A stretch of 64,000 bases of DNA from Kutzneria viridogrisea (GTDB lineage Bacteria; Actinomycetota; Actinomycetes; Mycobacteriales; Pseudonocardiaceae). The notes below the pieces were generated by a model. The model did not search any database, was not told the DNA's origin, and saw only the letters and a list, made by a program, of their open reading frames with translations. The stretch is taken from positions 1,116,001-1,180,000 of the forward strand of contig JACJID010000004.1 of the NCBI GenBank assembly GCA_014138725.1. The letters run 5' to 3'. Numbering within the stretch: position 1 is the first letter of the stretch; each line of letters starts with the position of its first letter. The position numbers were made by a program, and so were the translations under genes. Positions 712 through 24,297 of this stretch are shown here, one piece after another.

Positions 712-3349
712 CAACTTGCCGAACAGCCAGGTGCTCCGAAAGAACCGACTCAACCTCACCCAGCTCAATGCGGAACCCGCGCACCTTCACCTGATCATCC
801 GCACGCCCCACGAACTCCAGCTCACCGTCCGCGGTCCACCGCGCCAGGTCCCCGGTCCGATACATCCGCCCACCCGCAACACCAAACGGATCAGCAACGA
901 ACCGCTCCGCCGTCAGAGCGGAACGACCCAGGTAACCCCGGGCGAGTTGCGCGCCCGCGATGTACAACTCACCGGCCACTCCCGGCGGCACCGGCAACAA
1001 CCCTGAATCCAGCACGTACCACTTGGTGTTCCAAATCGGTCGGCCGAGTGCGATGTCGCCGTCTCGCACGGGACTGCCCGGTTCGATGCGGTACTCCGCG
1101 CAACCGACCGTCGTTTCCGTTGGCCCGTACTCGTTGAGCACAGTCGCGCCCGGGTTCTGCTGCCGCCACTCGCGCAGGGCCTCGCCGAGTAGGAGGTCCC
1201 CGCCGAGCACCAGTTGCTCCGTCGGCGAGAACTCCCCGGGCAGGTTCGCCAGCATCGGTGCGAGCGAAGGCGTTCCCTTGACGAACGTCGGCCGCCGCAG
1301 CCAATCGGGGAGGCGCTCCAGCGGCGCGAACTGCGCGCATCCACCGGAGATGAGCGGGCCGTAGAGCCCCGTCACAGTCAGGTCGAACGCAACGGAAGAA
1401 TGCACCAACGACGCACCGGCCAGCCCCGGGTAGCGATCCTGGGCCCACAACAGGTAATGGCACAGCGCGCTGTGCTCGATGGCAGCGCCCTTGGGTGTCC
1501 CGGTCGAACCGGACGTGTAGATGATGTAGGCGAGGTTCCCCGGCGACAACGGGGCAATGCGATCGGCATCAGCCAGATCGTTGGTGGTGCACGCGGCGAG
1601 TTCGGTGACGACATCGGGATCGTCGAGCAGCAGTACCGGCGCGGTTGCGCCCGCTGGAACGGCGGCGACGGCTTCGGCCGAGGACAGGATTGCCAGCGGC
1701 TGGACGTCGTTGAGCATGAACGCGATGCGCTCGGCGGGATACGTGTGGTCGACGGGCAGGTAGGCGGCACCGGTCTTCAGCACTGCCAGCACGGCGACGA
1801 CGAAGTCGATCGACGGCGTCAGTACCACCGCGACCAGTCGTTCCGGCCCCGCTCCCCGGCCGATCAGGTATCGCGCCAACTGGTTGGCCCGCGCATTCAG
1901 CTCCGCGTACGTGAGCGTGTGCCCGGCACAGGCGACCGCGGGAGACGACCCGTTGCTGCGCACCTGGGCCTGGAACAGTTCCGGCAGCGTGGTGAACGGC
2001 ACCGGCCAACTCGTGGCGTTCCACTCCACCACCATCCGGTCGCGGGTGTCCGGCTCGAGCACGTCGATCCGGCCAATCGGCCGGTCGAAGTCGGAAACCA
2101 TCGCCTCGATGGCACGGGTCACCCGCCGCAGCACGCCCCGGATCGCCGACTCGTCGAAGAGGTCGGGCCGGTACACCAGGCGCAGCCGGATGTCCTCGCC
2201 CGGGATCACCACGAGGCACATGGGGTAGTGCGCGGCATCCTGCCCGCGCACATCAGAGATCTGGAGGTTGGGTCCGAGGTCCCAGCCGCTGGCCGGGCCG
2301 ACCGGGTAGTTCTCGAACACGAAGTCGGTGTCGAACAATTCGCCGCCACCGACCTGCTGCAGCACATCGGTCAGCCCGAGGTACTGGTAGGCGGTCATCT
2401 TGGACTGCTGTTCCTGCAATTCGCGCAGGACATCGCTCAACCGGCGCGCGGGATCCAGCCGCAACCGCGCGGGCAGGGTGTTGATGAACAGCCCGATCAT
2501 CGACTCGACACCGGTCAGTTCGGCGGGCCGCCCGGACACCGTGGTGCCAAGCACCACGTCCGTGCGCCCGGTCATCCGGCCGAGCACAATGCCCCATGCC
2601 GCCTGCACCAGAATGTTCATCGTCACGCCGCGCTGCCGGGACAACTCCGTCAACCGCGCGGTGAGCCCGCCCGGCAACGGGATGACAACCTCGTCCGGAA
2701 CCACCGGCACCCGCGCCGGATCAGCCGGTGCGACCAAGGTCGGCCCGTCGATTCCGGCCAGGAGTTCCCGCCAGCGACGGCGCGCCACGTCCTTGTCCTG
2801 ATCAGCAACCCAGGCCAGGTAGTTCCGGTAGGGAGTCACCCTGGGCAGGTCGCTGTCGTTCCCCTTCGCGAGGTAGAGCGTGAACAACTCCCTTGCCAGC
2901 AACGGAGTCGACCAGCCGTCCAGCACGATGTGGTGGTTGGTCACCACGAACCGGTAGCGGTCCTCGGCCAGCCGCAACAACATGAACCGGATCAGCGGCG
3001 GCTTGTCCATCTCGAACCGCCGCACCCGGTCAGCCGCCATCAGCCGATCCAGCTCCGCAGCATCCGCCCCCGACAGGTCGTGCTCCTGCCAAGGCAAATC
3101 CACCTCACGCAACACCACCTGCACGGGTTCGCCGGTTTTCCTCGGCCGGAACTCGGTGCGCAGGTTCGCATGCCGCCGCAACAGGGTGGCCGCGGCGGCC
3201 CGCAACGCCGCGACGTCCAGGGCACCGCGCAGTTCGACGGAGAGCTGCACCAGGTAGACGTCGGGCCCCTGCTCGTCGTAGAGGGCGTGGAAGAGAAAAC
3301 CCTCCTGCAACGGCGCCAGGGGAAGAATCTCTTCGATCCGGGAATTCAC
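1..3349 (-). CDS. NRPS module 6, C-A(Asn-like) with inserted FkbM methyltransferase; 3' end beyond window
   Basis: Second NRPS of the cluster, 1,116 codons visible, open at position 1. A condensation domain comes first ([18 protein letters not shown] at residues 5-22; active-site HHIVLDGWS near 138). The A domain follows ([11 protein letters not shown] near 607). Its specificity residues, aligned by eye to GrsA, read DLTKVGEVGK, close to the published Asn code DLTKLGEVGK and identical to module 5 of the upstream gene. After core A8 ([15 protein letters not shown], near 850) an FkbM-family SAM methyltransferase is inserted (DVGGHVGM motif) and runs off the window; A9, A10 and PCP must lie beyond it. 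The preceding protein ends in an epimerisation domain, so this C domain should accept a D-residue donor. Start GTG 3349 is chosen because GAGAGG lies 9 nt upstream and the C-domain motif begins at once. Role: adds a methylated Asn-like residue. Confidence 0.93.
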
Positions 3350-3390: not shown

Positions 3391-6300
3391 TCAACCTCGG
3401 TCTTCGAACTCGTCGATGTCCTCCTGGGTGAGGGTCACCAACGGCATGTCCGATGGGGTGTAACCACCCGCGTCGGGGTGTTCGGCGTGGTTGACCAGCC
3501 CGGTCAGCACGCCTGCCCACGCGTCAGCGAGTTCGCGCACCGTGTCTTCGGTGAACAGTTCCGCGGGCCACAACCACGTCGCCCGCAGCACTCCGCCGTA
3601 CACGGCGGCATTGATCATCAGGGCGTGGCTGGCCGGGAGGTCCGGCGCGGCAGGTTCCACGGCGACGGCTTCGGGAGCCGGAGCCCAGTCGCCGAAGTCG
3701 ACCACGTCGGCCCGCCCCAGGTAGTTGAAGAGGATTTCTGGTTGCGGTAGCCCAGCCAGCACCGCGCTGGTCTCCGGGTTGAGATACCGGAGCAGACCGA
3801 AGCCGAGCCCGTCACCGGGAACAGCACGGACCTGCTCCTTCACCCGCTTGAGGACCTCACCCGCCGCGGGACCACCCGCGCACACCTCGGCGAAGTCCAC
3901 GGCACCAGCGTCCAGGCGCACCGGGTAGATGCTGGTGAACCAGCCCACAGTCCGCGACAAATCAACCCCGTCACCAGCATCGGCACGGCCATGGCCCTCA
4001 ACATCAACCACCAACGGACCAGACTGCCCACGCCACGAACCCACCGCCACCGCCAACGCCGCCAACAACACATCATCGACACCAGCATGAAACGCCGCCG
4101 GAACCGAACCCAACAACGGACCCGTCACCGACGACGGCAACTCCACCACCACCGACCGGACCTTGCCAGCCCGATCCCGCGTACCCAACGACGTGCTCGG
4201 CTCACCCAGAATCCGGCTCCACACCGGCAACTCCGCCACCCGCACCTGGCTCCGAGCCTGGTCGGCAAGCAAGCCCGCCCAACGCCGCACCGACGTCCCC
4301 ACCGAGGCCAACCCCGCACCCGACACCGCAGCGGCCAGATCGGGCAAGAGCACCCGCCAGGACACCCCATCGACTGCCAAGTGATGCACCACCACCAGCA
4401 ACCGGCCCGATACCTGCGGCCCGGCATCCAGCCACACCACCTGCACCAGCACACCGCGTTCGGGCGACAACCGAGCCTGCGCCGCGTGCAACTCCCGCTC
4501 CGCAACCGCAGTCGCATCATCGCCTGCGGCGAGCCGCACACGCCGGACCTGGCCTGCCACATCCACCGAACCCACCTCGGGAATCCGCAGCACCCAGCCC
4601 GCCCGTTCGTCCCGGCGGGCGATCATGCGCAACGCGTCATGGTGATCAACCACAGCCCGCACACCCGCGACCAGATTCTGCTCGGTCAAGTCAGTGGGAA
4701 CCTGCAACAACACCCACTGACAGAACCGATCCGCAGAACCACCAACTCCGGCAAGCTCCGCCAGCCAGTGCATCACCGGCAACGCCAGCACATCACCAGT
4801 ACCGATATCGGCCACCGGCTCGGCGTCCGCGTCCAACGCACGGGCAACCACCGCCAGACCAGCCACAGTCTTGTGCTCGAACACCTCCCGCGGACTGAAC
4901 CCCAACCCCACCTGCCGGGCCCGGCTCACCAGCTGGATCGACAAGATGCTGTCCCCACCCAAGGCGAAGAAACTGTCCTCGACCCCAACCAGCTCAAGCC
5001 CCAGGACTTCGGCGAACAGCCCACACAGGACTTCTTCCCGCACATCACGCGGACCCCGCGACGACACCACACCAGCACCGAAATCCGGTGCTGGCAGTGC
5101 CGCACGGTCCAGCTTCCCGTTCGCAGTCAGGGGCAACTCGTCCAGCACCACGAACGCCGCGGGCACCATGTACTCCGGCAACAGCCCTGCGGCATGTGAC
5201 CGCACCGCATCCACATCGACCTGTTCTCCAGCGGCAGGCACCAAGTAAGCCACCAACTGCTGATCAGCCACGCCATCCCGCCGCAGCACGACCACAACCT
5301 GCCCGACACCGGCACACCCAGCCAGAACCGCCTCGACCTCACCCAGCTCAATGCGGAACCCACGCACCTTCACCTGGTCATCCGCACGACCCAGGAACTC
5401 CAGCTCACCGTCCGCGATCCACCGCGCCAGGTCTCCGGTCCGGTACATCCGCCCGCCCCCGGCGCCGAACGGATCAGCAACAAACCGCTCCGCCGTCAGC
5501 GCAGCACGACCGAAGTAGCCGCGCGCCAACTGGATGCCAGCCATGTACAGCTCGCCGACCACACCGGGCGGCACCGGCAGCAGCCCCGAATCCAGCACGT
5601 ACAGCTGGGTGTTCCAGCCCGGACGGCCGATCAGCACGTTGCCCGGCGGCGTCACATCCCCAGGTTCGAGCCGCAACTCCGTTGACCCGACCGCTGTTTC
5701 GGTCAGCCCGTATTCGTTGATGACCGTCGCGGACGGGTGCCGACGCCGCCACTCCTGCAACACCTCGCCCAACAGCTGCTCTCCACCCACCACCAGCTCA
5801 CCGGTCGGCGAGAACCCGTCGGACAACGCGGTCAGCAGCGGCACGTGTGCGGGCGTGGCCTTCACGAACGTCGGTTGCACCAACCAATCCGGAGTGTCGT
5901 TCCCCGCCATTGCCAGCGAAGTCAGCTGCACAAGGCCACCGGTGATCAGGGGCCCGAACAAGCCCGTGACAGTCAGGTCGAACGCAACGGAGGAATGCAC
6001 CAGCGAAGCACCGGCCAGCCCCGGGTAGCGATCCTGGGCCCACAACAGGTAGTGGCACAGCGCACGATGTTCGATCGTGACGCCCTTCGGCGTTCCCGTT
6101 GACCCAGACGTGTACATCACATACGCCGGATTACCTGGAACCGCCCGCACGCCGACAACAGGATCATCATCGCGATATCCGACCAGCTCGTCCTCGCCGT
6201 CAAGCACCAGCACCGGCACGACACCACCGGGCAAGGCGCCTGTAACATCCACAGTGGACAACGCAACCACCGGACGCGCATCGGCGAGCATGAACTCGAT

Positions 6301-9300
6301 GCGCCCCAACGGATATGCCGGGTCGATGGGTACGTAAGCGCCGCCCGCTTTGAGCACCGCCAGCAAAGCGACAACCAGCTCGGCCGAAGCTGGAATCGCG
6401 ACGGCAACCAATCGCTCCGGCCCGACTCCGCGTTCGATCAGGTGATGGGCGAGCCGGTTCGCGCGCGCATTGAGCTGCGCGTAGGTCAACCGCTGCCCCT
6501 CCGACACCACCGCCACCGCATCCGGCGTACGCCGCACCTGGGCCTCGACCAACTCCGGCAACGTGGCCGCCGCGACCTCATGCGCGGTCGCGTTCCAGCC
6601 CGACACCACCAACTCCCGCTCGGCAGCACCCAGCACGTCGACCTGACCGACCCGCACACCCGGATCGGCAACCACCGACCCCAACACGCGAGCCAGACGC
6701 GCCACCATCAACTCAGCACTGCCACGATCAAAGATGTCGGTGTCGAACTCCAACACCAGATCAATCCCACCGGCATCCGGCCGCTCGGTCACGAAGAACG
6801 TCAGATCGAACTTCGCCGCACCCAACTGCACCGGCTCCGCCGCAACCACCAACCCCGGCAGATCCACCTCCACCCGCTCCGGCCCAGTAAACGCCACCAT
6901 CACCTGGAACAACGGATGATGCGACAACGACCGCACCGGGTTCAGGACCTCAACCAACCGCTCAAACGGCACATCCTGATGCCCATACGCCGCCAGATCG
7001 GCCTCCCGCACCCGACCCAACAACTCCCCGAACTCCGGATCACCCGAAGTATCAGTCCGCAACACCAACGTATTCGTGAAGAACCCAACCAACTCATCAA
7101 GAGCCTGATCAACGCGGCCAGCAACCGGAGTACCAATCGGGATATCAGTACCCGCACCCAAGCGGGTCAACAACACCGCCACAGCGGCCTGCACCACCAT
7201 GAACACCGTCGCATGCCGACCCCGTGCCAACCCGACCACACCAGCATGCAGCTCAGCGCCCAACGACAACGACACGGTGTCACCGCGATAACTCCGCACC
7301 GCAGGACGCGGACGATCCACCGGCAAATCCAGGCGCTCCGGCAACCCCGCCAGCACCTCACGCCAAAACCCCAACTGCGCCGACAGCAGACTGCCCGGAT
7401 CATCCTCGCTACCCAGCAACTCCCGCTGCCACACCGCGAAATCCGCGTACTGCACCGGCAACGGCACCCACCCCGGCACCTGACCCGCAAGCCGAGCCCG
7501 ATACGCCCGACCCACATCAGCCGCCAACGGCGTCAACGACCACCCATCACCCGCAACGTGATGCACCACCAACACCAACACGAACTCATCAGCCGACACC
7601 TGGAACAACCGCACCCGCACCGGCACATCCCGGCTCAAATCAAACCCAGCACGCACCACCGACCCCACCAACACCGACAACTCAGCCTCAGTCACCCGAG
7701 TCACCGACAGCGAAAAACCAACCTCCTCCACCACACGCTGATACGGCCTACCATCCACCTCAACAACCACCGTACGCAAAGCCTCATGCCGCGCCACCAC
7801 ATCACCCAGCGCCGCCTCCAACGCCGCCACATCCAACCCACCACTCAACCGCACCACAAACGGCACGTTGTACCGCGCACCCAACCCCTCAAACCGATCC
7901 AGGAACCACAACCGCTGCTGCGCGAACGACAACGGCACCAACTCAGGACGCACCCCCGCCACCAACGCCGCACGCACCCCACCCGCACGACCCACCACAC
8001 CCATCAACCCCGCCACAGTCGGCGACTCGAACAAATCCCGAATCGACAACTCCACACCCAACACCACCCGCGCCCGCGACACCAACCGCGTCGCCAACAA
8101 CGAATGCCCACCCAAATCAAAGAAATCATCATCAACACCCACCACAGACAGCCCCAGCACATCAGCGAAGAGCCGACACAAAATCTCCTCACGCGCATCA
8201 CGCGGCCCCCGCGACGACACCACACCAACGCCAACACCGAAATCTGGAGCAGGCAACGCCTTCCGATCCAACTTCCCGTTGGCGGTCAGGGGCAGTGCAT
8301 CGAGCATCACGCAGGCCGCCGGAACCATGTAGCCGGGCAGGAAGTCCGCAGCAGCCTTGCGCAGCACATCGGCATCGAGCACAACTCCTGTGGCGGGCAC
8401 GACGTACGCCACCAACTGCTGGCCCGCACCGTCGTCACGGAGCACAACCGAGGCCTGGCCGACTCCTGGCTGCTGGTTCAGCACCGCCTCGATCTCACCC
8501 AGCTCAATGCGGAACCCGCGCACCTTCACCTGGTCATCCGCGCGCCCCATGAACTCCAGCTCGCCGCCCGAAGACCACCGCACCAGATCCCCGGTCCGGT
8601 ACATCCGCCCACCCATGGCACCGAACGGATCAGCAACGAACCGCTCCGCCGTCAGCGCAGAACGCCCCAGGTAGCCCCGGGCCAACTGCACGCCAGCAAC
8701 GTAGAGCTCGCCGACCACACCTGGCGGCACCAAACGCAATGCCGCGTCGAGGACGTAGGTCCGCAGGTTCGGCAATGCCCGCCCCACCGCGCTGCGCCCA
8801 CCACCGGCCTCGGTGACCACCTGGTGCGTCACATGTACGGTGGCCTCGGTCAGTCCGTACATGTTCACCAGGCGCGGGCCGCCGCTGCCGTACTGGGCGA
8901 ACCAGCTGGCCAGCCGGTCGAAGCGCAGTTCCTCGCCACCGAACACCACGTAGCGCAGTCGCGACCCCAGCGCGCCCGGCTGCTCCATCGCCTCGACCAG
9001 GCCGGAGAACGCCGACGGCGTCTGGCTCAACACCGTGACGCCCTGCTCCCGCAGCAAATCCCACATCTGCCGCGGTGACCGGCTCACCTCGAACGGCACC
9101 ACCACCGCCCGGCCGCCGCTGAGCAGCGGTCCCCACAGCTCCCACACCGAGAAGTCGAACGCGAACGAGTGGAACACCGTCCACACGTCGTCGACGCCGA
9201 ACTCGAACATCTCATTCGCCGCGCCGAACAGCGCCACCGCGCTGGCATGCGACACCGCAACACCCTTGGGTACGCCGGTGGAACCCGAGGTGTAGATCAC

Positions 9301-12300
9301 GTACGCCACGTGATCCGGTGCCAGTGCGCCGCGTTCGGCAACTCCGATGTCCCCGGAGGGCAACTCCGCCAGCAGCGCGCCGGTTTCCGGATCGTCCAGC
9401 AGCAGCAGGCGAACCCCGGCCGGTACCACCGATGCCGTCAGGGTGTCGGTGAGCACCACCACCGGCCGCGAGTCCGCCAGCACGAACCGGATTCGCTCCG
9501 CGGGGTACCCGGGGTCGATCGGCACGTATCCAGCACCGGCCTGCACCACCGCGAGCATCGCCACCACCGCGTCCAGCGAACGCGGCAGCACCACCCCGAC
9601 CAGGCATTCCGGGCCCACCCCGCGCGCGAGCAACAGACGCGCCAGCCGGTTCACCCGCTCGGTCAGCTCGCGGTACGACAGCGATTCGCCCGCACACACC
9701 ACTGCGGTCGCTTCGGCACGCGACTGCGCCCGCGCCTGGAACAACTCCGCCAACGTCCCCGGGGCGGCCGCCCGGCTGGTGCCCTGCCAGGTCGTCAGCA
9801 ACCGGTCCCGTTCGGCCCGGTCCAGCACGTCGATCCGGTCGACTGCCTGCACCGGGTCGTCCGCGACGGCCTGCAACGCGCGCACCAACCGGTCCAGGAC
9901 GGATCGGGCGTAGTGCTCGTCGAACAGGTCGGGCCGGTAGTCCAGGCGGAGCAGCAGTTGCGTACCGGGGATCGCGACCAGAGTGAGCGGGTAGTGCGCG
10001 GCATCGCGTCCCCGCAGCTGGGTGATCTCCAGTCCGGTGCCCGGCTCGTCGCCGATCTGCATCGGGTAGTTCTCGAACACGAAATCGGTGTCGAACAGCT
10101 CGCCGGCACCGGCCAGCTGGTGCACCTCGGTCAGGCCGAGGTACTGGCATGCCGTCATCTCGGCCTGCTGCCGCAGCAAGTCGCTAAGCAGGCTGGTGAC
10201 CGGTGTCCCGGGACGCAACCCCAACCGGATCGGCAGGGTGTTGATGAACAGGCCCAGCATCGACTCGACACCGGCGAGTTCGGCGGGACGGCCGGACACG
10301 GTGACGCCGAACACCACGTCCGTGCGCCCGGTCAACTGCCCGAGCACAATGCCCCACGCCAGCTGGAGCAGGGTGTTCAGGGTGACCTCCTGCTCCCTGG
10401 CGAGCGCGGTCAGCCGTGTGATGAGGCCAGCGGGCAAGCTGATCGCGAGCTGATCGGGTACAGCTGACGCCCGGTGCTGGTCCTGCGGGGCGACCAGCGT
10501 CGGCCCGTCCACACCGGCGAGCAGTTCCCGCCAATGCCGCCGCGCCTCCTCCCGGTCCTGCTCGGCCACCCAGGCCAGGTAGTCCCGGTACGGGGTCACC
10601 CTCGGCAGCACGGACTCGTCGCCACCCGCGCGGTAGAGCGCGAACAACTCCTTGGCCAGCAACGAATTCGACCACCCGTCCAGCACGAGGTGGTGGCTGG
10701 TCATGATGAACCGGTACCGGTTGCCGCCAAGGCGTACCAGCGTGAACCTGGTCAGCGGTGCTTGTGCCAGGTCGAATCGCCGCACCCGGTCGTGCTCGGT
10801 CAGCCGGTCGAGTTCGGCCGCGCGCCCCGCATCGTCCAAACTGGACAGATCGTGCTCCGCCCACGGCAACGCGGCTTCCCGTACGACCACCTGGACCGGT
10901 TCGTCCAAGCCGTCCACGGCGAACCCGGCCCGGAGGTTGACGTGCCTGCGCAGCAACGCCGCCGCGGCCGACCGCAGGGCCACGAGATCGAGTTCCCCGG
11001 CCAGATCGGCCCAGAACTGCACCAGGTAGACGTCGACGTCCTGCTCGTCGAACAACGCGTGGAACAACAGGCCTTCTTGCAACGGGGCCAGCGGCAGCAC
11101 ATCCGCTACCTGCGGCCACCCGGCCTCGATCCGCTCGATCTCCTGCTGGGAGAGGTGAACCAGCGGGAGGTCCGAGGGCGTGAACCCGCCTGTCCCCTGG
11201 GAAACCTCGATCAGCTGGCCGAGTGCCGTGCGCCATTCTTCTGCCAGCACAGCGACTTCAGGTTCCGGCCAGAGTTGCCCCGCCCAGGTCCAGGTGGCGT
11301 CCATGCGCGGGCCGCCCGAGTGGTCACGGGTGACCACGGTGATCTCCAGACCGTGCGCGAGTGGCATGTCCGGGTCCACCCCACCGGTCAGGAACTCCAT
11401 TTCCGGCGCAGCGGTCCAATCCCCGGTGGCACCGTCGGAGGCGGGCAGGCGTCCGAGGTAGTTGAAGCCGATCTGGGCTCGCGGGAGGTCGGCGAGCACG
11501 CTCGCGGTGTCCTCGTTGAGGTAGCGCAGGACACCGTGGCTGAGGCCGCCACCGGGCACCGCCCGCAGGGTTTCCTTGACCTGCTTGAGCGCGGCCAAGG
11601 GGTTGCGCGGATCGCCTGCTGCCAGCCGTACCGGGTAGATACTGGTGAACCAGCCCACGGTGCGAGTGAGATCGGCTTCACTGCCGGGGAAACCATCGCG
11701 TCCGTGGCCTTCGACGTCGACCAGCACGGTCGCGTCCGCGGAGCGCCCGGTACGCCGCCGCCACCGGTCGACCGCGATGGCGAGCGCGGTCAGCAGGACG
11801 TCGGAAACCGAGCCGCGCACCGCGGCGGGGGCCGAAGTCAGCAACGCCGCGGTCTGTCCTTCCGGCAGCTGCACGGTCATGGTTCGCGCGGTAGCGGCCA
11901 CGTCGCTGCTGCGATCGAGCGCGCGGCTGGTCAGCAGTCGGTCGCCGGTGCCAATGGCGCTGGCCACCTCGGCCAGCCGGTGTTCCTGCTGGGCCGCCCA
12001 TTCCCGCAGCGACAGGGCCCAGTGCCGGATCGGCGTGCCCAGCGGTTGCAGCTGCACCGGGTTGCCCGCCGACAGGTCGCGCCATGCTTCGGCCAGGTCA
12101 GTCAGCAGGATCCGCCAGGAAACCCCGTCCACGACAAGATGGTGCACGGCGAGCAGCAACCGGCCGTGCTCGTGCGGGCCCGCGTCGAACCACACCGCCT
12201 GCAGCACGATGCCAGCACTGGGGTCGAGGAGCTCACGGGCCTGTGCCGCCCACTGCCGGTAGCTGGCGGCGCGTTCGCCGGGGCCGAGGTCGGAGACGTC

Positions 12301-15300
12301 GACCCGGTGAACGAGGTCATCTGCTTTGACGTCACCGGCTGGCGGGATGTGCCAGGACGCGCTGGTGTCCCCGGGCTTGGTGGCGCGTGTGAAGCGCGAT
12401 CGGAGCGCGTCGTGCTGGTCGAGCAGGGTTTGCACGAGTTCGACGAGCCGGGCCAGGTCGAGTTCCCTTGGGGTGGCGAGGAAAACCGACTGGCTGATGC
12501 CGTCGAGGTTCCGGCCGTGTTCGTACAGGGCATGCATGATCGGGATCAGCGGCGAGTCCCCGGTGGTCGGCTCTGTGGTGCCAGCACCGAGTTCGTTGTC
12601 CGCGCTGGCCACCACTTCAGCAAGCGCCGCAACGGTTTTCCGCTCGAACACCTGCCTCGGAGTGATCCGCAGCCCGGCCCGGCGCGCCTTGCTCACCAAC
12701 TGGATGGAGACGATGCTGTCGCCGCCGAGGGCGAAGAAGCTGTCGTCCACGCCGACCCGGTCCAAGCCGAGCACTTCGGCGAACAGACCGGCCAGGATCT
12801 CCTCACGTGCGTTCCCCGGCTCGCGATCTGAAACCACATCAGCGAAGTCCGGAGCTGGTAGTGCTTTGTGGTCCAGTTTTCCGTTGGCGGTCAGGGGTAG
12901 TGCGTCGAGTACGACCAGTGCCGAGGGCACCATGTACTCCGGAAGCCGTTGCGCCGCCTGAACCTGGATGTCGGCGGTCAACTGCTGCGGCGTGAACCAC
13001 CGCTGGACGGGAACAGACTGCCGCACACCACTGGCGACCTGACCGGGGCGGGTGGCATACACCTGGAACATGCCCGTGCCCTCCAGCCCCTCGGGCAACT
13101 CCACCACCACACTGAACCCGCGCTCCTCCAACATCCCGGTCACCACGGCCAACCGGCCGTCCTCGTCATGCACCTCCGCCACCACCTGCCGGATCAACGG
13201 CCAGTGCTCCTCCTCGATGCCCCGCAGCACCGCGAGCTCGCTCTTCTCCGCATCCACCTTCAACAGGTCAACAACCTCAAGCCCGAAGTCCCGAATCACC
13301 TGCGAGACCGTCCGCAACTCCACCTCCACCGGCTCACCCCGCAGCCGCTGAGCCAGCAACTCCCCCAACACACCCTCATCCCCACCACCCCCACCAGCGG
13401 TGTTGCCGATCACCCGCCGCAACATCGCCTCCTCCACACCCTCATCAGCAAACCGCCCCGACAACAACGACATCTCCGGGTAATACGTGAACACCGCCCG
13501 ACCCGGCGCGTCCGACACACCGCAAGTGGTCACCACCGCATCCACACCATGCAAATACGCGTTGAACCGATAAAACTCCGCCGACTCCGGCATCGGCTCA
13601 CACGCAAACACCCGCACACCCCGCACCCGCCCCACAAACAACCCGAACATCCCCACATGCCCACCCACATCCACCACACACGCGCCCTCCTCCACCACCA
13701 CCCCACCGCGCGCGTACTCCCCCCGCACAAAAATCTCATCAAACAAATACTCCACATTCGACCGATTCCGCCCCGCCACCACCAACCCACCCGACAACTC
13801 ATGCACCGGCACACCCACAACCCGACCCGCACGCTCCAACTCACCCCACCGCACCACCCCACCCGCCACCACCACATCCGGCACCACATACCCCACCAAC
13901 ACACCATCACGCACCGCAACCACAACCTGACCCACACCCACATGCCCCGCAAGAACCGATTCGATCTCGCCCAGTTCGACGCGGTAGCCCCTGATCTTGA
14001 CCTGATCATCCACACGGCCCACGAACTCGAGTTCACCGTCGGCGGTCCACCGCGCGAGGTCCCCGGTCCGATACATCCGCCCACCCGCAACACCAAACGG
14101 GTCAGCAACGAACCGCTCCGCCGTCAGCGCAGAACGCCCCAGATAGCCCTGCGCTAGCTGCATACCTGCGATGTACAGCTCCCCGGCGACACCCGGCGGT
14201 ACCGGGAGCAAGCCCGAGTCCAGCACGTACACCTGGGTGTTCCACACCGGACGGCCGATCGGCACCACACCCGCACCCGGTGCGCATTCGGCGGCGGTGA
14301 CATCGATCGCGGCCTCGGTCGGACCGTACAAGTTCCACAGAGCCGCGTCCGACACTGCCATCCACTGGTCCACCAGATCGGCGGGTAGCGCTTCGCCGCT
14401 GCACACCACCACCCGCAACTCCACACCCCCACCACCACCAACCTGCGCGAGGAACGCCCGCAACATCGACGGCACGAAATGGGCGACCGACACCCGCTCC
14501 GCCCGCATCAACCCCGCCAGATACTCCGGATCACGATGACCACCCGGCCGCGCCAACACCACCACACCACCCACCAACAACGGCCACAACAACTCCCACA
14601 CCGACACATCAAACCCACACGACGTCTTCTGCAACACCCGCTCACCCAGAGCAAGAGCAAACCGGTCCTGCATCCACAACAACCGATTCACCACCGCACC
14701 ATGCCCCACCACAACACCCTTAGGCACACCAGTCGACCCAGACGTATACAACACATACGCCGGATGACCCGACCCGACCACCACACCGGGATCTTCATCG
14801 CGATACCCGGCGACGACACTGTCATCCAGCAGCACACACTCCACACCCGCGGGCACCAAACCCGAGGCATCCTCAACAGCCAGCACCAACCGAGGCCCGG
14901 CGTCGGCAAGCATGAACTCGATCCGACCCGCCGGGTAGTCAGCATCCACCGGCAAATACGCACCACCAGCCTTCAACACCGCAAGAACGGCCACCACCAA
15001 CTCCACCGAACGCGGCAGCACAACACCAACTACACACCCCGGCCCCACACCACGCTCGACCAGCCACCACGCCCACCGATTCGCCCGCGCATTCAACTCC
15101 GAATAACTCAACTGCTGACCCTCGAACACCACCGCCACCGCATCCGGTGTGCGCCGAACCTGCGCCTCAACCAGCTCCGGCAGCGACGCAGGCGCAACCT
15201 CATGCGCCGTCGCATTCCAGCCCGACACCACCAGCTCCCGCTCGGCAGCACCCAGCACGTCGACCTGACCAACCCGCACACCAGGATCAGCAACCGCAGT

Positions 15301-18300
15301 GTCCAGTACCCGCAGCAACCGGTCGATGACCGTGTACGCGGCTTGTTCGTCGAAGAGGTCGGGCCGGTAGATCAGGCGGAGGCTGAGGCCGTCATCCGGG
15401 TGCACCACCAGGCTCATCGGGTAGTGCGCGGCGTCCTGACCGTGGAACCCGGTGATCCGCAGGTCCGGGCCGAGCGCTTCGGCGCTGCCAGCTGGGCCGA
15501 CCGGGTAGTTCTCGAACACGAAGCTGGTGTCGAACAGCTCGCCGCCACCGGCCTGCTGCAACACATCAGTCAGCCCGAGGTACTGGTAGCTGGTGAGCGC
15601 GAACTGCTGTTCTTGAAGCTCGGTCAGCAGATCGCGCAGGCAATCCCCGGGCGCCAGTCGCAGGCGCACCGGCAGCGTGGTGATGAACAGGCCGATCATG
15701 GACTCCACGCCAGTGAGCTCGGCGGGACGGCCGGACACAGTGACGCCGAGCACCACGTCGGTGCGCCCGGTCATCCGGCCCACCACAATGCCCCATGCGG
15801 CCTGCATCAGAGTGTTCAGCGTGATTCCGCACTCCCGCGCGACATCCACCAGCCGCCCGGCCAGATCACCAGGAACCGCAACGGTGATCTCGTCGGGCAC
15901 GACTGGCGCCCGCGCCGGGTCCGGCGGCGCGATCAACGTCGGTCCGTCCACCCCGTCGAGCACTCGCTGCCAGTGCCTGCGAGCGTCCTCAGCGTCCTGC
16001 GCGGCCACCCAGGCCAGGTAGTTGCGGTACGGCACGACCGGCGGCAGGTCGACGTCCTCGCCACCGGTCACGTAGAGCGCAAACAACTCCCTTGCCACCA
16101 AGGGAATCGACCAGCCGTCGAGCACGATGTGGTGGTTGGTCAGCACGAGCCGGTAGCGGTCTTCAGCGAGGCGCAGCAGCATGAACCGGAGCAACGGCGC
16201 GCTTCCGGTGTCGAATCGCCGCGCCCGGTCGGCAACGGTGATCCGCTCAATCTCGGCCGCCAGTTCCGCTTCATCCAATGCGGACAGATCATGTTCTGAC
16301 CACGGTAGGTCCACTTCACGCAACACCACCTGGACTGCGCGACCAAGGCCGTCATAGGCGAATCCCGCGCGCAGGTTGGCATGCCGCCGCAGCAAGGTGT
16401 GCGCGGCTGAGCGCAGTGCATCGGAGTTCACCTTGCCTTGCAGGTCAACGGCGAACTGCACGACGTAGACATCGGGTCCCTGCTCGTCGTAGAGGGCGTG
16501 GAACAGCAGCCCCTCCTGCAACGGGGACAGCGGCAGGACATCGTCCATTCCCCGCCAGGTCTGCTCCAGCGCTTCGATCTGAGGTTGACTCAACTCAACC
16601 AATGGCAGATCGGCAGGCGTGAACCCACCGGTGCCAGGCTTCTCGGCGTGGACTGCCAGTCCGGTGAGCACTTCGACCCAGCGCTGCGCGAGCTCATCGA
16701 CTTCCTGTTCCCCGAACAGTTCTCCGGGCCAGGACCAAGTCGCCCGCAGCACACCGTCTTGCACGATTGCGTTGACCGATAGTGCGTGGCTGGCTGGGAA
16801 GTCCGACGCCGCAGGTTCAATGCTGGCAGTTTCCGTTGCCAGGGACCAATCCTGCGCCACCGAGGCATCTACTCGCCCCAGGTAGTTGAAGAGGATTCCT
16901 GGTTGCGGTAGCCCAGCCAGCACCGCGCTGGTCTCCGGGTTGAGATACCGGAGCAGACCGAAGCCAAGCCCGTCACCGGGAACAGCACGGACCTGCTCCT
17001 TCACCCGCTTGAGGACCTCACCCGCCGCGGGACCACCCGCGCACACCTCGGCGAAGTCCACGACACCAGCATCCAGACGCACCGGATAGATGCTGGTGAA
17101 CCAACCCACAGTCCGCGACAAATCAACCCCGTCACCAACATCAGCACGACCATGGCCCTCAACATCAACCACCAACGGACCAGCCTGCCCACGCCACGAA
17201 CCCACCGCCACCGCCAACGCCGCCAACAACACATCATCGACACCAGCATGGAACGCCGCCGGAACCGAACCCAACAACGGCCCCGTCACCGACGACGGCA
17301 ACTCCACCACCACCGACCGAACCGGCGCAGCCCGATCCCGCACGCCCAGTGACATGCCCGACTCGCCGAGAATCCGGCTCCACAGCGGCAACTCCGCTAC
17401 CCGTGCTTGGCTCCGAGCCTGCTCAGCAAGCAGACCCGCCCAACGCCGCACCGACGTCCCCACCGGGGCCAACCCCGCACCCGACACCGCAGCAGCCAGA
17501 TCGGGCAAGAGCACCCGCCAGGACACCCCATCCACCGCCAGGTGATGCACCACCACCAACAACCGACCCGACACCCCCGGGCCAGCATCCAGCCACACCA
17601 CCTCCACCAGCACACCGCGCTCGGGCGACAACCGACCCTGCGCCGCATGCAACTCACGCTCCGCAACCACAGCCACGTCCTCACCCGCGACGAGCCGCAC
17701 ACGCCGAACCTGGCCTGCCACATCCACCGAACCCACCTCGGGGACCCGCAGCACCCACCCCGCCCGCTCGTCCCGGTGGGCGATCATGCGCAACGCGTCA
17801 TGGTGATCAACCACAACCCGCACACCCGCGACCAGGTTCTGCTCAGTCAAATCAGCAGGAACCTGCAACAGCACCCACTGGCAGAACCGATCCGCAGAAC
17901 CATCAACTCCAGCAAGGTCGGCCAGCCAGTGCATCACCGGCAACGCCACCACATCACCAGTACCGATGTCGGCCACCGGCTCGGCATCCGCATCCAGCAC
18001 CCGGGCAACCGCCGCCAGACCAGCCACATTCTTGCGCTCGAACACGTCCCGCGGGCTGAACCCCAAACCGGCCTGCCGGGCTCGGCTCACCAGCTGGATC
18101 GACAAAATACTGTCCCCACCCAGCGCGAAGAAACTGTCCTCAACCCCAACCAGCTCAAGCCCCAATACTTCAGCGAACAGCCCGCACAGGACTTCCTCAC
18201 GCGCGTCACGCGGAGCCCGCGACGGCATGACACCAGCACCGAAATCCGGGGCTGGCAGTGCCGCACGGTCCAACTTCCCGTTCGCAGTCAACGGCAACTC

Positions 18301-21300
18301 GTCCAGCACCACGAACGCCGCAGGCACCATGTACTCCGGCAACAACCCAACAGCATGTGACCGCACCGCAGCCACATCCACCGGTTCTCCGCCAGCAGGC
18401 ACCAAGTAGGCCACCAACTGCTGATCGGCCACGCCATCCCGCCGCAGCACGATCACAACCTGGGCAACACCGGCACACCCAGTCAGAACCGATTCGATCT
18501 CGCCCAGTTCGACGCGATAACCCCTGATCTTGACCTGATCATCCGCCCGGCCCACGAACTCGAGTTCACCGTCGGCGGCCCACCGGACCAGGTCCCCGGT
18601 CCGGTACATCCGCCCACCCGCAACACCGAACGGGTTGGCCACAAACCGCTCCGCCGTCAGAACAGAACGCCCCAGATAGCCTTGGGCCAACTGCGTGCCC
18701 GCGATGTACAACTCACCGGCCACACCAGGCGGCACCGGCAGCAGCCCCGAATCCAGCACGTACACCTGGGTGTTCCACACCGGACGACCAATCGGCACCA
18801 CACCCGCACCCGGTGCGCATTCGGCGGCGGTGACATCGATCGCGGCCTCGGTCGGACCATACAGATTCCATACCGGCGCGTCCGACACCGCCGCCCACTG
18901 GTCGACCAGATCAGCGGGTAGCGCCTCGCCGCTGCACACCACCACCCGCAACTCCGCACACCCACCACCACCGACCTGCGCGAGGAACGCCCGCAACATC
19001 GACGGCACGAAATGGGCGACCGACACCCGCTCCGCCCGCATCAACCCCGCGAGGTACTCCGGATCACGGTGACCACCCGGCCGCGCCAACACCACCACAC
19101 CACCCACCAACAACGGCCACAGCAACTCCCACACCGACACATCAAACCCACACGACGTCTTCTGCAACACCCGCTCACCTGGTGCCAGAGCGAACCGGTC
19201 CTGCATCCACAACAACCGATTCACCACCGCACCATGCCCCACCACAACACCCTTAGGCACACCAGTCGACCCAGAGGTGTACAACACATACGCCGGATCA
19301 ACAGACCCAACCACCACACCGGGATCATCATCGCGACACCCGGCAACGAGATCGTCCTCCAACAGCACACACTCCACACCTGCGAGCACCAAACCCGAGG
19401 TTTCCTCAACAGCCAACACCAGCCGAGGTCCAGCGTCGGCAAGCATGAACTCGATCCGACCCACCGGATAGTCCACGTCCACCGGCAAATACGCACCACC
19501 GGCCTTCAACACCGCGAGAACGGCTACGACAAGCTCGGCCGAACGCGGCAACACGACACCAACTACACACCCCGGCCCCACACCACGCTCGGCCAACCAC
19601 CACGCCCACCGATTCGCCCGCGCATTCAACTCCGCAAACGACACCTCCACACCCTCGAACACCACCGCCACCGCATCGGGCGACCGCCGAACCTGCGACT
19701 CCACCAACTCCGGCAACGACGCAGACACAACCTCATGCGCCGTCGCATTCCAGCCCGACACCACCAGCTCCCGCTCGGCAGCATCCAAGACGTCGATCTG
19801 GCCAACCCGCACACCAGGATCAGCAACCACCGAACGCAGCACGCGAGCCAGACGCGCCACCATCAACTCAGCGCTGCCACGATCAAAGATGTCGGTGTCG
19901 AACTCCAACACCACATCGATCCCACCAGCATCCGGCAGCTCGGTGAGGTAGAAAGTCAAGTCGAACTTCGCCGCACCCAACTGCACGGGCTCAGCCGCAG
20001 CGCGCACACCGGGCAGATCCACCCCGATGTCTGCTGGATTCCCGGCAGCGATCATCACCTGGAACAACGGGTGATGCGACAACGACCGCACCGGGTTCAG
20101 GACCTCAACCAACCGCTCGAACGGCACATCCTGATGCCCATACGCCGCCAGATCGGCCTCCCGCACCCGACCCAACAACTCCCCGAACCCCGGATCACCC
20201 GAAGTATCAGTCCGCAACACCAACGTATTCGTGAAGAACCCAACCAACTCATCAAGAGCCTGATCAACGCGGCCAGCAACCGGAGTACCAATCGGGATAT
20301 CAGTCCCGGACCCCAGGCGGGTCAACAACACCGCCACAGCGGCCTGCACGACCATGAACACCGTCGCATGCTGACTCCGTGCCAACCCGACCACACCAGC
20401 ATGCAGCTCAGCGCCCAACGACAACGACACGGTGTCACCGCGATAACTCCGCACCGCAGGACGCGGACGATCCACCGGCAAATCCAGGCGCTCCGGCAAC
20501 CCCGCCAGCACCTCACGCCAAAACCCCAACTGCGCCGACAGCAGACTGCCCGGATCATCCTCACTACCGAGCAGTTCTCGCTGCCACACGGCGAAATCCG
20601 CGTACTGAACCGGCAACGGCACCCACACTGGCGTCTGGCCTGCCAGTCGAGCCCGATACGCCCGACCCACATCAGCCGCCAACGGCGTCAACGACCACCC
20701 ATCACCCGCAACGTGATGCACCACCAACACCAACACGAACTCATCAGCCGACACCTCGAACAACCGCACCCGCACCGGCACATCCCGGCTCAAATCAAAC
20801 CCAGCCCGCACCACCGACCCCACCAACACCGGCAACTCAGCCTCAGTCACCCGAGTCACCGACAGCGAAAAACCAACCTCCTCCACCACACGCTGATACG
20901 GCCTACCATCCACCTCAACAACCACCGTACGCAAAGCCTCATGCCGCGCCACCACATCACCCAGCGCCGCCTCCAACGCCCCCACATCCAACCCACCACT
21001 CAACCGCACCACAAACGGCAGGTTGTAGGCACTGCCCAACTGCTCCAGCCGATCCAGGAACCACAAACGGGACTGGGCGAAGGACAGCGGCACCAGATCG
21101 GGCCTGGGCCGCGCGACCAGTTGTGGCCGGGCCGCGGCGCCACCGGACAGGCGTGAGGCGACCCCGGCAACCGTCGGCGACTCGAACAAGTCCCAAATGG
21201 ACAGTTCAGCGCCCAGCACGACACGCACCCGCGACAGCAGGCGCGTCGCCAGCAGCGAATGCCCGCCCAGCTCGAAGAAGTTGTCGTCGACGCCGACCCG

Positions 21301-24297
21301 GTCCAAACCGAGCACCTCGGCGAACAGCCCGCACAGGCGCTCCTCCTGCGAGGTCTGCGGCTCGCGCCCGGACTCCTCGCCGGTGAACTCCGGGGCAGGC
21401 AGTGCCCTGCGGTCCAGTTTCCCGTTGGCGGTCAACGGAAGTTCACCAAGCACCACGAACCCGGCCGGTACCATGTAGTCCGGCACGCTCTGAGCGGTGA
21501 ACGCGCGCAGGGCGAACACGTCGACCAGGCTGCCGCCCGCGGGCACGACGTAGGCGACCAACTGCTTGCCCGCGGCGCCGTTGTCCCGCGCCACCACCGC
21601 GACCTGCCCCACGGCGGGATGCCGGGCCAGCACGCTCTCGACCTCGCCGAGTTCGATCCGGAACCCGCGGATCTTCACCTGGTCATCGGCCCGACCGAGG
21701 AACTCCAGCTCGCCGTCGGCGTTCCAGCGGACCAGGTCCCCGGTGCGGTACATGCGGGTACCGGCCGGTCCGAACGGGTCGGCCACGAACCGTGAGGCGG
21801 TCAGCGCCGGGCGCTTGAGGTATCCGCGTGCCACCTGAACGCCCGCCACGTACAGCTCGCCGACCACTCCCGGCGGCACCGGGCACAGGCCGGTGTCCAG
21901 CACGTAGACCTGGGTGTTGTCGATCGGCTTGCCGATGGATGCGATGGCGGGCCAGTCCGCGACCGACTCCGGGAGGGTGCTCGCGGTGACCACGTGCGTC
22001 TCGGTCGGCCCGTAGTAGTTGTGCAGCCGACGGCCCGGGCGCAGCTGGTAGAAGTTCCGCACGACCTGGCTCAGGCCAAGGGCTTCACCGGCCTGCATGA
22101 CGTCGGTGAGGTCAGGCAGCCGCTGGCCGTGGGCCAGCGCCGCCTCGGCGAGCCCCTCCAGCACCGGGTTCGGCGCGTACAGCTCGGCGGTCCCGTGGGA
22201 GGCGAACCAGTCGACCAGCTTGTCCAGGTCGAGCCGGGTCTCGCTGGAGGTCACCACCAGTGTCTTGCCGAACAGCAAGGAGGAAAGGATCTCCTGCGCG
22301 GCGGCGTCGAAGCTCAACGCCGCGAACTGGGCGGTGCGCAGCCCGGGGCGGTCAACCGGGAGGTTGCGCGCGTTCCAGGACATCAGGTTGACCAGGGCGA
22401 TGCCGGGCAGGCTGACGCCCTTGGGCCGACCGGTCGACCCCGAGGTGTAGATCACGTACGCCGGGTGTTCCGGCAGCAGCCGGCACAGCCGGTCGGTGTC
22501 GGTGAGATCGCCGTCCCGGTAGCCGTCCAGCTCGGCCGCGGTGGCCGGGTCGTCGAGGAACACGGTGCGGTCCCGGGCAGCTTCCGGTACCACCTCGGCG
22601 GTCTCCGCGGTCGCGAGCACCACAACCGGCTCGGCGTCGCCGACCATGAACCCGATCCGCTCGGCCGGGTAGGCGGGATCGATCGGCAGATACGCCCCGC
22701 CCGCCTTGAGCACCGCCAACGTGGCGATCACCAGCTCGCTCGAGCGCGGCAGCAGCAGGCCGACCAGCCGCTCCGGGCCGACCCCCAGCGCGACCAGGTG
22801 GCGGGCCAGCCGGTTGATCCTCGCGTTGAGACCGGCGTAGGTGTACTCCCGGCCCTCGAACACCAGCGCGGTCGCCTCAGGGGTGCCCGCGACCTGCTCC
22901 TGGAACAGGTCGGGCAGGGTGCTCTGCGGTACCGGCCGCGCGGTGTCGTTCCACGCCACCAGGACCTGCTTGCGCTCGGCGGCGTCGAGCAGGCTGATCC
23001 GGCCGACGGGGGTGTCCGGGCCCAGTTGGAGCACGGAGGCCAGGAACGCGCTGAACCGCGCCTCGTGCGCGGCGATCTCGTCCGCGCCGTAGAGCGCGCT
23101 GTTCCAGCCGATGTCCAGGCGCAGGCCCGCGCTGGTCGGCTCGCCGTAGGCGACCACGGCGAGGTCGTCGACCGGACCGTTGGACACGCCGTGGATCGTG
23201 CCCTCACACTGTCCGAAGTGGACGCTCTGCCCGAAGGGCATCAGGTTGACCATCGGGCCGAAGGGCCGCACGTCGTTGGCGGCGATGCCCAGGTCGCGGC
23301 GGATCTCCTCGTAGCGGTAGCGCTGGTGCCGGAACGCGTCGCGCATCTCGGCGGAGGTCCGGCGCACCAGCTCGGCCAGCGTGTCGCCGGGACACATGCC
23401 GATGCGGACCGGGACGACGTTGGACATCATGCCAGGGGTCGAACGGGCCTGCCTGCCAACGCGTCCGGTGACGGGCAGCTCCACGACGGCGTCCCCGGCA
23501 CCCGACATGCGGGCCACGTACGCCGCGACGGCCGTGGTGATGACCGTGGACCAGCGCGTACCCATGTCACGGCTGATGTCCTGCAGGCGGGCCGCGTCGC
23601 TGGCAGGCAGGTCGGCCGCGTGCCAGATCGGGGTGCGCGCCCTGGCCGGTTGCCGTCGGGACAGGGTGGCCGGACTGGCCAGGTCGCCCAGCAGCCCGGA
23701 CCAGTACTGCCGGTCCCGCTCCAGTTGCGGGGAATCCCGGTACTGCTGGTCCTCCGCCAGCAGCAGCGGGAAGTCCGGCAGCACGCCCTCGTCCGGGTCG
23801 CCGCCGCCGGTGAGCGCCGTGTAGATGCTCGCCGCCCGCTTGGTCAGCAGCAGGCCGGTGAACCCATCCGCCCCGATGTGGTGGCTGCGGTAGTACCACA
23901 GCACGCGGGTGGCCGACAGGACGAGCAGGCCGGTGACGAAGACCTTGCCCGCGGTGAGGTCGAACGGCTCGGTGACGCCCGCGCGCAGCAGCTCCAGCGC
24001 GGTGCCGAACGGGTCGTCCCCGGAGCTCAGGTCGGTCACCGGGACCGGGAAGTCCTCGTCGGCCTGGACGACCTGGTACGGCTCGCCGTCGCGCTCGGCG
24101 AAGCGGCTGTGCACCGACTGGGTTTCCCCCATTGCTCGCCGGACTGCCGAACGCAATGCGCCGACGTCCACCGCACCGCGAATGTCGACGTACGAGCCGA
24201 TCGTGAACACCTGGGGTTCGGGGTTCAACTTCTGAGCGAACCAGATGCCGCGTTGCGGAACCGACAAAGGCAGGTGGAGCCCGGCAGGTCGAGCCAC
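3391..24297 (-). CDS. Five-module NRPS: C-A-PCP / C-A-PCP-E / C-A-MT-PCP-E / C-A-PCP / C-A-PCP-E
   Basis: A 6,968-residue megasynthetase. Module 1 (about 1-1050): EntF-like C domain (HHIGADGF near 139) and an A domain with code DAQYMAYVVK, nearest to proline codes. Module 2 (1050-2545): C, A code DVWHVSLIDK (Ser), PCP (GGDSILS near 2061), E domain (HHLAVDGVS near 2250; [10 protein letters not shown]). Module 3 (2555-4350): C, Ser code again, an FkbM methyltransferase between cores A8 and A9 (about 3480-3750), PCP, E. Module 4 (4365-5430): C, code DFWSVGMVHK (Thr), PCP, no E. Module 5 (5440-6968): C, code DLTKVGEVGK (Asn-like), PCP, E. Predicted order: Pro-like, D-Ser, methyl-D-Ser, Thr, D-Asn. 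All A domains keep the core Asp and the A10 Lys (NGKLD). Start GTG 24297 has GAGGGGAAG just upstream. There is no thioesterase; the chain passes to the gene at 3349. Codes are by-eye readings. Confidence 0.97.
3735..7866 (-). repeat. Module 5 block paralogous to module 2 (C and PCP-E parts near-identical)
   Basis: The E and PCP coding part (about 3735-5340) matches 16896-18480, and the C-domain part (about 6920-7866) matches 20068-21021, with long exact runs and offsets of 13,161 and 13,155 bases. The A-domain core between them is different (Asn-like instead of Ser), so this is a module duplication with an exchanged A core. Confidence 0.85.
13212..13922 (-). repeat. FkbM methyltransferase cassette, copy in module 3
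   Basis: Complete copy of the cassette, lying inside the Ser-specific A domain of module 3. The domain reads [10 protein letters not shown] (SAM loop), then [10 protein letters not shown] and [14 protein letters not shown], the hallmarks of the FkbM family (Methyltransf_21). A8 ([15 protein letters not shown]) precedes it, and A9 ([11 protein letters not shown]) and A10 (NGKLDHKAL) follow, so the insertion point is A8/A9. Confidence 0.9.
16896..21021 (-). repeat. Module 2 block paralogous to module 5
   Basis: Counterpart of 3735-7866: near-identical C domain and PCP-E region around a Ser-type A core. The Ser A core is itself close to that of module 3 (about 14170-15130), showing A-core similarity between neighbouring modules within each pair. 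Confidence 0.85.

What the first reader, a model, noticed from the sequence alone, without database searches (positions are those of the whole stretch)
13050..14060. FkbM-type methyltransferase inserted in A domains between cores A8 and A9
NRPS methyltransferases inserted at A8/A9 normally belong to the classical N-methyltransferase group with a different motif I. Here the insert is an FkbM-family domain ([21 protein letters not shown]), a family best known for sugar and polyketide O-methylation. It occurs, almost unchanged, inside both a Ser-specific and an Asn-like A domain. Asn has no side-chain hydroxyl, so one common reaction would have to be backbone N-methylation or carboxamide methylation, whereas Ser alone would suggest O-methylation as in kutzneride-type O-methylserine.
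Basis: partly seen in the sequence, partly recalled or inferred. Interest (0 to 1): 0.75.

Follow-up and report, generated by a model that had tools for sequence, protein, structure and literature searches.

The report
O-methylating inserts inside peptide-synthetase selector domains
A giant antibiotic-type peptide synthetase carries two almost identical methyl-adding domains buried inside its serine- and asparagine-choosing domains; the best reading is that both put a methyl on the same beta oxygen, because the cluster also encodes an enzyme that probably gives asparagine a beta-hydroxyl.

Summary
In detail: a FkbM-family (PF05050/TIGR01444) domain interrupts two A domains between A8 and A9. 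One is Ser-type (module 3, window about 12991-13878). One is Asx-type (module 6, window 1-667 plus about 220 bases outside). They are 98.7% identical. That Asn lacks a hydroxyl has a likely answer outside the window: behind NRPS3 and MbtH the cluster encodes a protein 60.9% identical to the solved asparagine oxygenase AsnO. A co-linear cluster in Kribbella antibiotica keeps both inserts and AsnO. Of 27 A8-A9 FkbM inserts with a readable code, 18 sit in Ser/Thr domains, 5 in Glu-like, 2 in Asx and 2 in unassigned ones; of 25 readable ordinary N-MT inserts, 4 sit in Ser/Thr domains. Best model: in-cis beta-O-methylation giving O-methylserine and beta-methoxyasparagine. FkbM inserts as such are not unique: an FkbM O-MT domain in an NRPS module (hangtaimycin) and Ser O-methylation by an A8-A9 insert (KtzH) are in print. 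New here: one MT cassette shared by a Ser and an Asx module, homogenised over the insert, in a line with AsnO. No chemistry was shown.

The parts
3391..24297 (-). NRPS1, 6968 aa, modules 1-5 (C-A-T / C-A-T-E / C-A[FkbM]-T-E / C-A-T / C-A-T-E); start codon not tested
13882..15180 (-). N-terminal part of module 3 A domain (up to A8), Ser-type code DVWHVSLID; outer edge approximate
12991..13878 (-). FkbM methyltransferase insert of module 3 between A8 and A9; edges approximate
12808..12990 (-). C-terminal part of module 3 A domain (A9, A10); edges approximate
1..3349 (-). 5' part of NRPS2 (2920-aa frame in all, continues left of the window to window coordinate -5239): modules 6 and 7
   Evidence: start at VNSRIEE counted by eye
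1..667 (-). FkbM insert of module 6 (continues to about -220 outside the window), Asx-type A domain DLTKVGEVG
25029..25751 (+). type II thioesterase, conserved in the Kribbella cluster (67.5%)
26604..29534 (+). stand-alone A-T protein, conserved in the Kribbella cluster (54%)
29297..31201 (+). NodU-like carbamoyltransferase, conserved in the Kribbella cluster (73%); start uncertain, ORF overlaps the previous one

Best explanation
Both inserts are side-chain O-methyltransferases acting in cis on the aminoacyl-T intermediate at the beta oxygen. In module 3 the A domain loads L-Ser and the insert makes O-methylserine, then epimerised by the E domain. In module 6 the A domain loads 3-hydroxyasparagine made from L-Asn by the cluster's AsnO-type Fe/2-oxoglutarate oxygenase (or Asn hydroxylated on the carrier), and an almost identical insert makes 3-methoxyasparagine. 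Ser, Thr and 3-hydroxy-Asn present the same CH-OH next to the alpha carbon and differ only in the group behind it, so one catalytic domain could serve all three. Shown: family, position, codes, AsnO homologue in the cluster, conservation in Kribbella, distribution over residue types. Inferred: activity of the oxygenase, loading of 3-hydroxy-Asn by module 6, the O-methyl site, timing on the carrier.
For: AsnO homologue directly behind MbtH behind NRPS3 on the same strand (contig 1095682-1096794): best solved-structure match 2og5 asparagine oxygenase, E 2.1e-105, next clavaminate synthase 1, 1.4e-39; 60.9% identity over 304, HNE motif and the Asp at chain position 265 kept. The Kribbella antibiotica contig (90409 bp) has the same three NRPS genes in the same module order, FkbM at module 3 (Ser) and module 6 (Asx), an intact AsnO 71%, MbtH 84%, FAD enzyme 68%, PhyH 72%. 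Residue types of A8-A9 FkbM inserts: Ser 14, Thr 4, Glu-like 5, Asx 2, unassigned 2, of 27. Ordinary N-MT inserts: Ser 3 (one is module 8 of this line), Thr 1, neither in 21, of 25 readable among 30 fetched. Side-chain oxygen 25/27 against 4/25, Fisher p 1.9e-8; counted once per 60% identity cluster and residue class 17:2 against 2:8, p 4e-4; Ser/Thr alone 13:6 against 2:8, p 0.02. Tree (midpoint root): our two and the two Kribbella inserts lie in a 13-row group of 10 Ser, 1 Thr and 2 Asx (99/96), which suggests that Asx inserts arose from Ser/Thr-type ones. The same line uses an ordinary N-MT insert at module 8. Literature: of 29 FkbM proteins of known clusters, 4 have experimental and 25 indirect evidence for O-methylation; EreM is the only reported N-MT (PMC9259500, passages). 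FkbM domain in an NRPS module assigned to O-methylation in hangtaimycin (PMC10624959, passages). Beta-methoxy-Asn formed by hydroxylase CysJ plus O-MT CysQ in cystobactamids (PMC7966384, passages).
Against: No product or assay. Module 5 has the same code as module 6 without an insert, so AsnO could serve module 5 only, leaving module 6 with plain Asn. The only two Asx cases are orthologues. AsnO-like genes also lie near two Ser-type inserts (G132, about 23 kb; G260, 1.5 kb, 42% partial match), and for none of the five Glu-like inserts was one found on the same contig or plasmid record, so AsnO does not track Asx inserts alone and does not explain the Glu-like ones. Glu-like inserts (5 of 27) have no hydroxyl unless hydroxylated. 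At 50% clustering the Ser/Thr contrast is weak (7:5 against 2:8, p 0.10), and the N-MT control is a nearest-neighbour set. The oxygenase could act on another amino acid. In hangtaimycin the O-methyl assignment rests on exclusion, since the domain deletion abolished product.
Confidence: 0.62

Rival explanations
1. Backbone N-methylation at both modules: the FkbM inserts methylate the alpha-amino nitrogen of Ser-T and Asn-T, as the FkbM enzyme EreM does on a ribosomal peptide backbone.
For: EreM precedent in PMC9259500 and PMC11285071 (passages); A8-A9 is the usual place of NRPS N-MT domains (reviews, passages); it needs no hydroxyl on Asn.
Against: FkbM inserts sit in Ser/Thr/Glu-like/Asx domains in 25 of 27, while 21 of 25 readable N-MT inserts sit in other domains (DMENLGLIN-type 10, Phe/Tyr-like 5, various 6); the same assembly line uses an ordinary N-MT insert at module 8.
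Confidence: 0.13
2. Split behaviour: the module 3 insert O-methylates Ser, but the module 6 insert methylates the Asx side chain itself (carboxamide N of Asn or carboxylate O of Asp), with the oxygenase serving module 5.
For: Five Glu-like FkbM inserts would be explained by carboxyl or carboxamide methylation; Asn side-chain N-methylation is known in RiPPs (PoyE/AerE), though PMC9259500 puts those in another family, PF05175.
Against: The two inserts are 98.7% identical, so different acceptor atoms are unlikely; the Glu-like inserts are in another part of the tree, though that deep split is weak (62/51).
Confidence: 0.15
3. One or both inserts are inactive passengers, or the cluster is silent.
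For: No expression or product data; an A domain in module 10 without A3-A5 motifs shows that this line carries probably dead parts.
Against: Both inserts are kept with intact motifs in two genomes only 59-67% alike at these domains, and in each genome the two copies resemble each other more (98.7%, 75.3%) than their orthologues (59.1%, 67.0%), which suggests continued use and homogenisation.
Confidence: 0.1

Closest known systems
KtzH A4-Ms of kutzneride synthetase
   Same: Methyltransferase between A8 and A9 of a Ser A domain, reported to O-methylate L-Ser (PMC11355689 passages)
   Different: Sequence of its M domain was not available here, so family identity was not tested; no Asx module with the same M domain is named in what I read
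HtmB1 module 16 of hangtaimycin
   Same: FkbM-type (FKMT) methyltransferase domain in an NRPS module, assigned to O-methylation (PMC10624959 passages)
   Different: Single domain; residue and position within the A domain not given in the passages read; assignment by exclusion
CysJ/CysQ of cystobactamid
   Same: Beta-hydroxylation then O-methylation of carrier-bound Asn to beta-methoxyasparagine (PMC7966384 passages)
   Different: CysQ is a separate O-methyltransferase; CysJ acts on carrier-bound Asn; a different domain (AMDH) is inserted in the Asn A domain
AsnO asparagine oxygenase (PDB 2og5)
   Same: 60.9% identity to the cluster's oxygenase
   Different: Its pathway (CDA, recalled) is not known to me to O-methylate the hydroxyasparagine
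EreM of pythonamide biosynthesis
   Same: FkbM family acting on a peptide substrate
   Different: RiPP maturase that N-methylates backbone amides
ColG of columbamide biosynthesis
   Same: Listed as A-Ms-Mb-A with O- and N-methylation at A8-A9 (PMC11355689 table)
   Different: Two methyltransferases in one A domain; family not tested here

Membership tests
FkbM methyltransferases (PF05050, TIGR01444) | Profile score above the curated cut-off | tested here: met
   52.2 bits vs 22.7; 84 bits vs 37.7
FkbM methyltransferases (PF05050, TIGR01444) | DxGxxxG motif in place of E/DxGxGxG | tested here: met
   DVGGHVG in both copies; the motif contrast (as DxGxNxG) is named in PMC10624959
Ordinary NRPS N-methyltransferase inserts | Match to the methyltransferase profiles hit by the N-MT insert (Methyltransf_11/12/23/25/31) | tested here: not met
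   Module 8 N-MT hits them, module 3 insert does not at E 0.01; of the other FkbM inserts scanned, one (L012) touches Methyltransf_25 below its cut-off
Interrupted A domains, side-chain (Ms) type | Methyltransferase between A8 and A9 with A motifs kept on both sides | tested here: met
Interrupted A domains, side-chain (Ms) type | A domain selects a residue with a methylatable side chain | tested here: inconclusive
   Met by code for Ser (module 3); for module 6 only if 3-hydroxy-Asn is loaded
Interrupted A domains, side-chain (Ms) type | Demonstrated O- or S-methylation of the carrier-bound residue | not testable with these tools
   needs assay
Interrupted A domains, side-chain (Ms) type | Homology to the KtzH M domain | not tested
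   KtzH sequence not in hand; the main survey (PMC8341866) is not held
AsnO asparagine oxygenases | Closest solved relative is AsnO, with iron-ligand motif | tested here: met
   2og5, E 2.1e-105, 60.9%, HNE motif kept
AsnO asparagine oxygenases | 3-hydroxylation of L-Asn | not testable with these tools
   needs assay; that the Asp at chain 265 favours Asn is recalled and its numbering inferred

The most novel reading that the evidence does not exclude
The FkbM insert is a portable beta-oxygen methylation cassette of about 1 kb that recombines between A domains and tolerates different groups behind the CH-OH (H in Ser, methyl in Thr, carboxamide in 3-hydroxy-Asn). In a line with an AsnO oxygenase it would be an interrupted A domain that makes beta-methoxyasparagine in cis, and the two copies in one assembly line would be kept alike by gene conversion.
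Probability: 0.45. Interest if true: 0.6.

Novelty: new variant of a known kind. Interest (0 to 1): 0.45.

Why it matters
If right, it explains how one inserted domain can serve two unlike residues, gives a rule of thumb for telling O-methyl from N-methyl by the inserted family, and offers a natural swap unit for adding beta-methoxy groups to peptides. It also predicts a testable product with O-methylserine, beta-methoxyasparagine and an N-methylated Ser for two genera, one of them the named strain Kribbella antibiotica JCM 13523.

Tried and rejected
No clear solved relative of the insert was found by sequence. The idea that the insert is an ordinary N-MT was rejected by profiles. PoyE/AerE as an FkbM precedent for Asn carboxamide methylation was dropped: PMC9259500 places them in PF05175. 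The third Fisher test used guessed counts and is discarded; one search replaces it. A working note gives 9 DMENLGLIN-type N-MT domains; the recount is 10. Literature on FkbM inserts in A domains: searches listed no paper whose passages I read as describing an FkbM domain inside an A domain; one search gave the hangtaimycin paper. The main survey of interrupted A domains (PMC8341866) is not held, so such inserts may be in print there.

Dropped before counts: of 42 loci scanned, 26 had a readable A8-A9 code (recounted); the rest were stand-alone, PKS, remnant, A2-A3, cut or unresolved frames. Kribbella module 3 makes 27. Many match rows had no locus and were not read; of 51 plasmid records, 7 were fetched. 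Of 30 N-MT loci, 5 were unreadable and left out.

Full report
Observation. The long minus-strand ORF at 3391-24297 is a five-module NRPS. In module 3 a FkbM domain lies between A8 (13975-14019) and A9 (12916-12948); the insert proper is about 12991-13878. PF05050 and TIGR01444 both score well above their cut-offs. The second copy, in module 6, runs off the left end of the window; the missing part was read from the same contig (window = G000:C4:1116001-1180000). The copies are 98.7% identical in protein, with 15 mismatches in 951 bases. The near-identical tract runs from about -306 to 710 against 12905 to 13921: the insert, some 40 bases before it, and A9. Beyond it identity is 67% on the A10 side and 76% on the A8 side, though the conserved A7-A8 stretch rises again to 93%.

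Assembly line. Codes in order: module 1 DAQYMAYVV, 2 Ser, 3 Ser + FkbM + E, 4 DFWSVGMVH (Thr), 5 DLTKVGEVG (Asx) + E, 6 DLTKVGEVG + FkbM, 7 DIWHFSLVE (Ser-like) + E, 8 Ser + ordinary N-MT + E, 9 DFWSVGMVH (Thr) + E, 10 an A domain in which no A3-A5 motif was found, then T and TE. Residue names of codes are recalled. Behind NRPS3 on the same strand: MbtH, an AsnO homologue, a FAD_binding_3 enzyme, a PhyH oxygenase.

Relatives. A Kribbella antibiotica contig carries a co-linear cluster: ORFs of 6805, 2896 and 4501 aa with the same residue types in order except Thr for Ser in module 2, FkbM in modules 3 and 6, an N-MT motif in module 8, no A3-A5 found in module 10, and MbtH, AsnO, FAD enzyme, PhyH, thioesterase, A-T protein and NodU-like gene. 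Its AsnO frame is intact; the stop flagged is the end of the MbtH gene before it. In both genomes the two inserts resemble each other (98.7%; 75.3%) more than their orthologues (module 3 59.1%, module 6 67.0%), and the tree pairs them by genome (100/99 and 92/78). This fits concerted evolution.

Which residues. A profile of eight inserts was run over 297 genomes of the window's family (69 with a match at E 1e-30), 396 of its phylum (2 at 1e-60, one being the window's own) and 245 of the order of the Kribbella genome (1 at 1e-70, Kribbella itself). Two loci came from a genome-contig scan and seven from plasmid records. Of 42 loci scanned, 26 gave an insert behind A8 with a readable code; the motif search found A9 or A10 behind 25 of them, and L021 shows both on reading. 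Kribbella module 3 makes 27: Ser 14, Thr 4, Glu-like D[AST]KDLG[VL]VD 5, Asx 2, DLKNVGSDV 1, one odd. As a control, the 30 best loci of N-MT inserts similar to module 8 were fetched from a search of 200 genomes, 78 with a match; of 25 readable, 3 are Ser (one is module 8 itself), 1 Thr, 10 DMENLGLIN, 5 Phe/Tyr-like and 6 various. The side-chain-oxygen contrast holds after clustering at 50, 60 and 70% identity (p 0.008, 4e-4, 3e-5); the contrast for Ser/Thr alone is p 0.10, 0.02 and 0.025. The control is a nearest-neighbour set, not a random sample.

Oxygenase. The protein's best solved relative is AsnO (E 2.1e-105; next 1.4e-39), 60.9% identical over 304 residues. A search of 25 genomes or records that hold FkbM inserts found AsnO-like genes in 14; on the same contig within 30 kb of the insert only in this genome, in G132 (Ser-type, about 23 kb) and in G260 (Ser-type, 1.5 kb). 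Kribbella adds one. In the genome of L007 it is on a contig of another length than that of the insert. Several of these genomes are drafts in many pieces, and for five loci only a plasmid record was searched. So the pairing holds in 2 of 2 Asx clusters, which are orthologues, but is not exclusive to them.

Mechanism. Ser, Thr and 3-hydroxy-Asn share the beta CH-OH. One insert type that methylates that oxygen explains why the same domain can sit, almost unchanged, in a Ser and an Asx module. The alternative of N-methylation is weakened by the residue distribution and by the ordinary N-MT at module 8. It is not excluded, since the FkbM enzyme EreM N-methylates peptide backbones (PMC9259500, passages). 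The Glu-like inserts remain unexplained by this model.

Novelty. Interrupted A domains with side-chain O-methylation (KtzH) and an FkbM domain in an NRPS module (hangtaimycin) are in print. One insert type shared by a Ser and an Asx module in a line with AsnO was not seen in the listings, but the main survey of the field could not be read. Hence: new variant of a known kind.

Noticed in passing
contig G000:C4:1096880-1110760 (left of the window), and Kribbella L055/L056: Module 10 has an A domain with A8 but no A3-A5 motif found, followed by T and TE, in both clusters; probably a dead or skipped selector domain.
   Followed up: partly
window 26604-31201: A stand-alone A-T protein and a NodU-like carbamoyltransferase next to the NRPS genes are conserved in the Kribbella cluster, suggesting a carbamoyl group in the product.
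   Followed up: partly
L018 (residues 228-492 of its frame): A FkbM domain that lies before the A3 motif of an A domain with a Thr-like start of code, a different insertion point (A2-A3) for the same family.
   Followed up: no
L025, L029, L036, L037: Short frames with what looks like a remnant of the C-terminal part of an A domain, a FkbM domain and a carrier domain: FkbM inserts that seem to have outlived the A core.
   Followed up: no
L011, L014, L032, L033, L035: FkbM inserts in A domains with Glu-like code D[AST]KDLG[VL]VD, in a different part of the tree; what they methylate is unclear.
   Followed up: partly
G000:C1:470694-471482 and G000:C1:492712-493593: Elsewhere in the same genome a stand-alone FkbM gene related to the inserts (39.6%) lies about 21 kb from a second AsnO-like gene (61% to the cluster's oxygenase).
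   Followed up: no
contig G000:C4:1093662-1094459: PhyH oxygenase with solved relatives including leucine hydroxylase 5nch (E 7.4e-47), conserved in Kribbella (72%); substrate unknown.
   Followed up: partly
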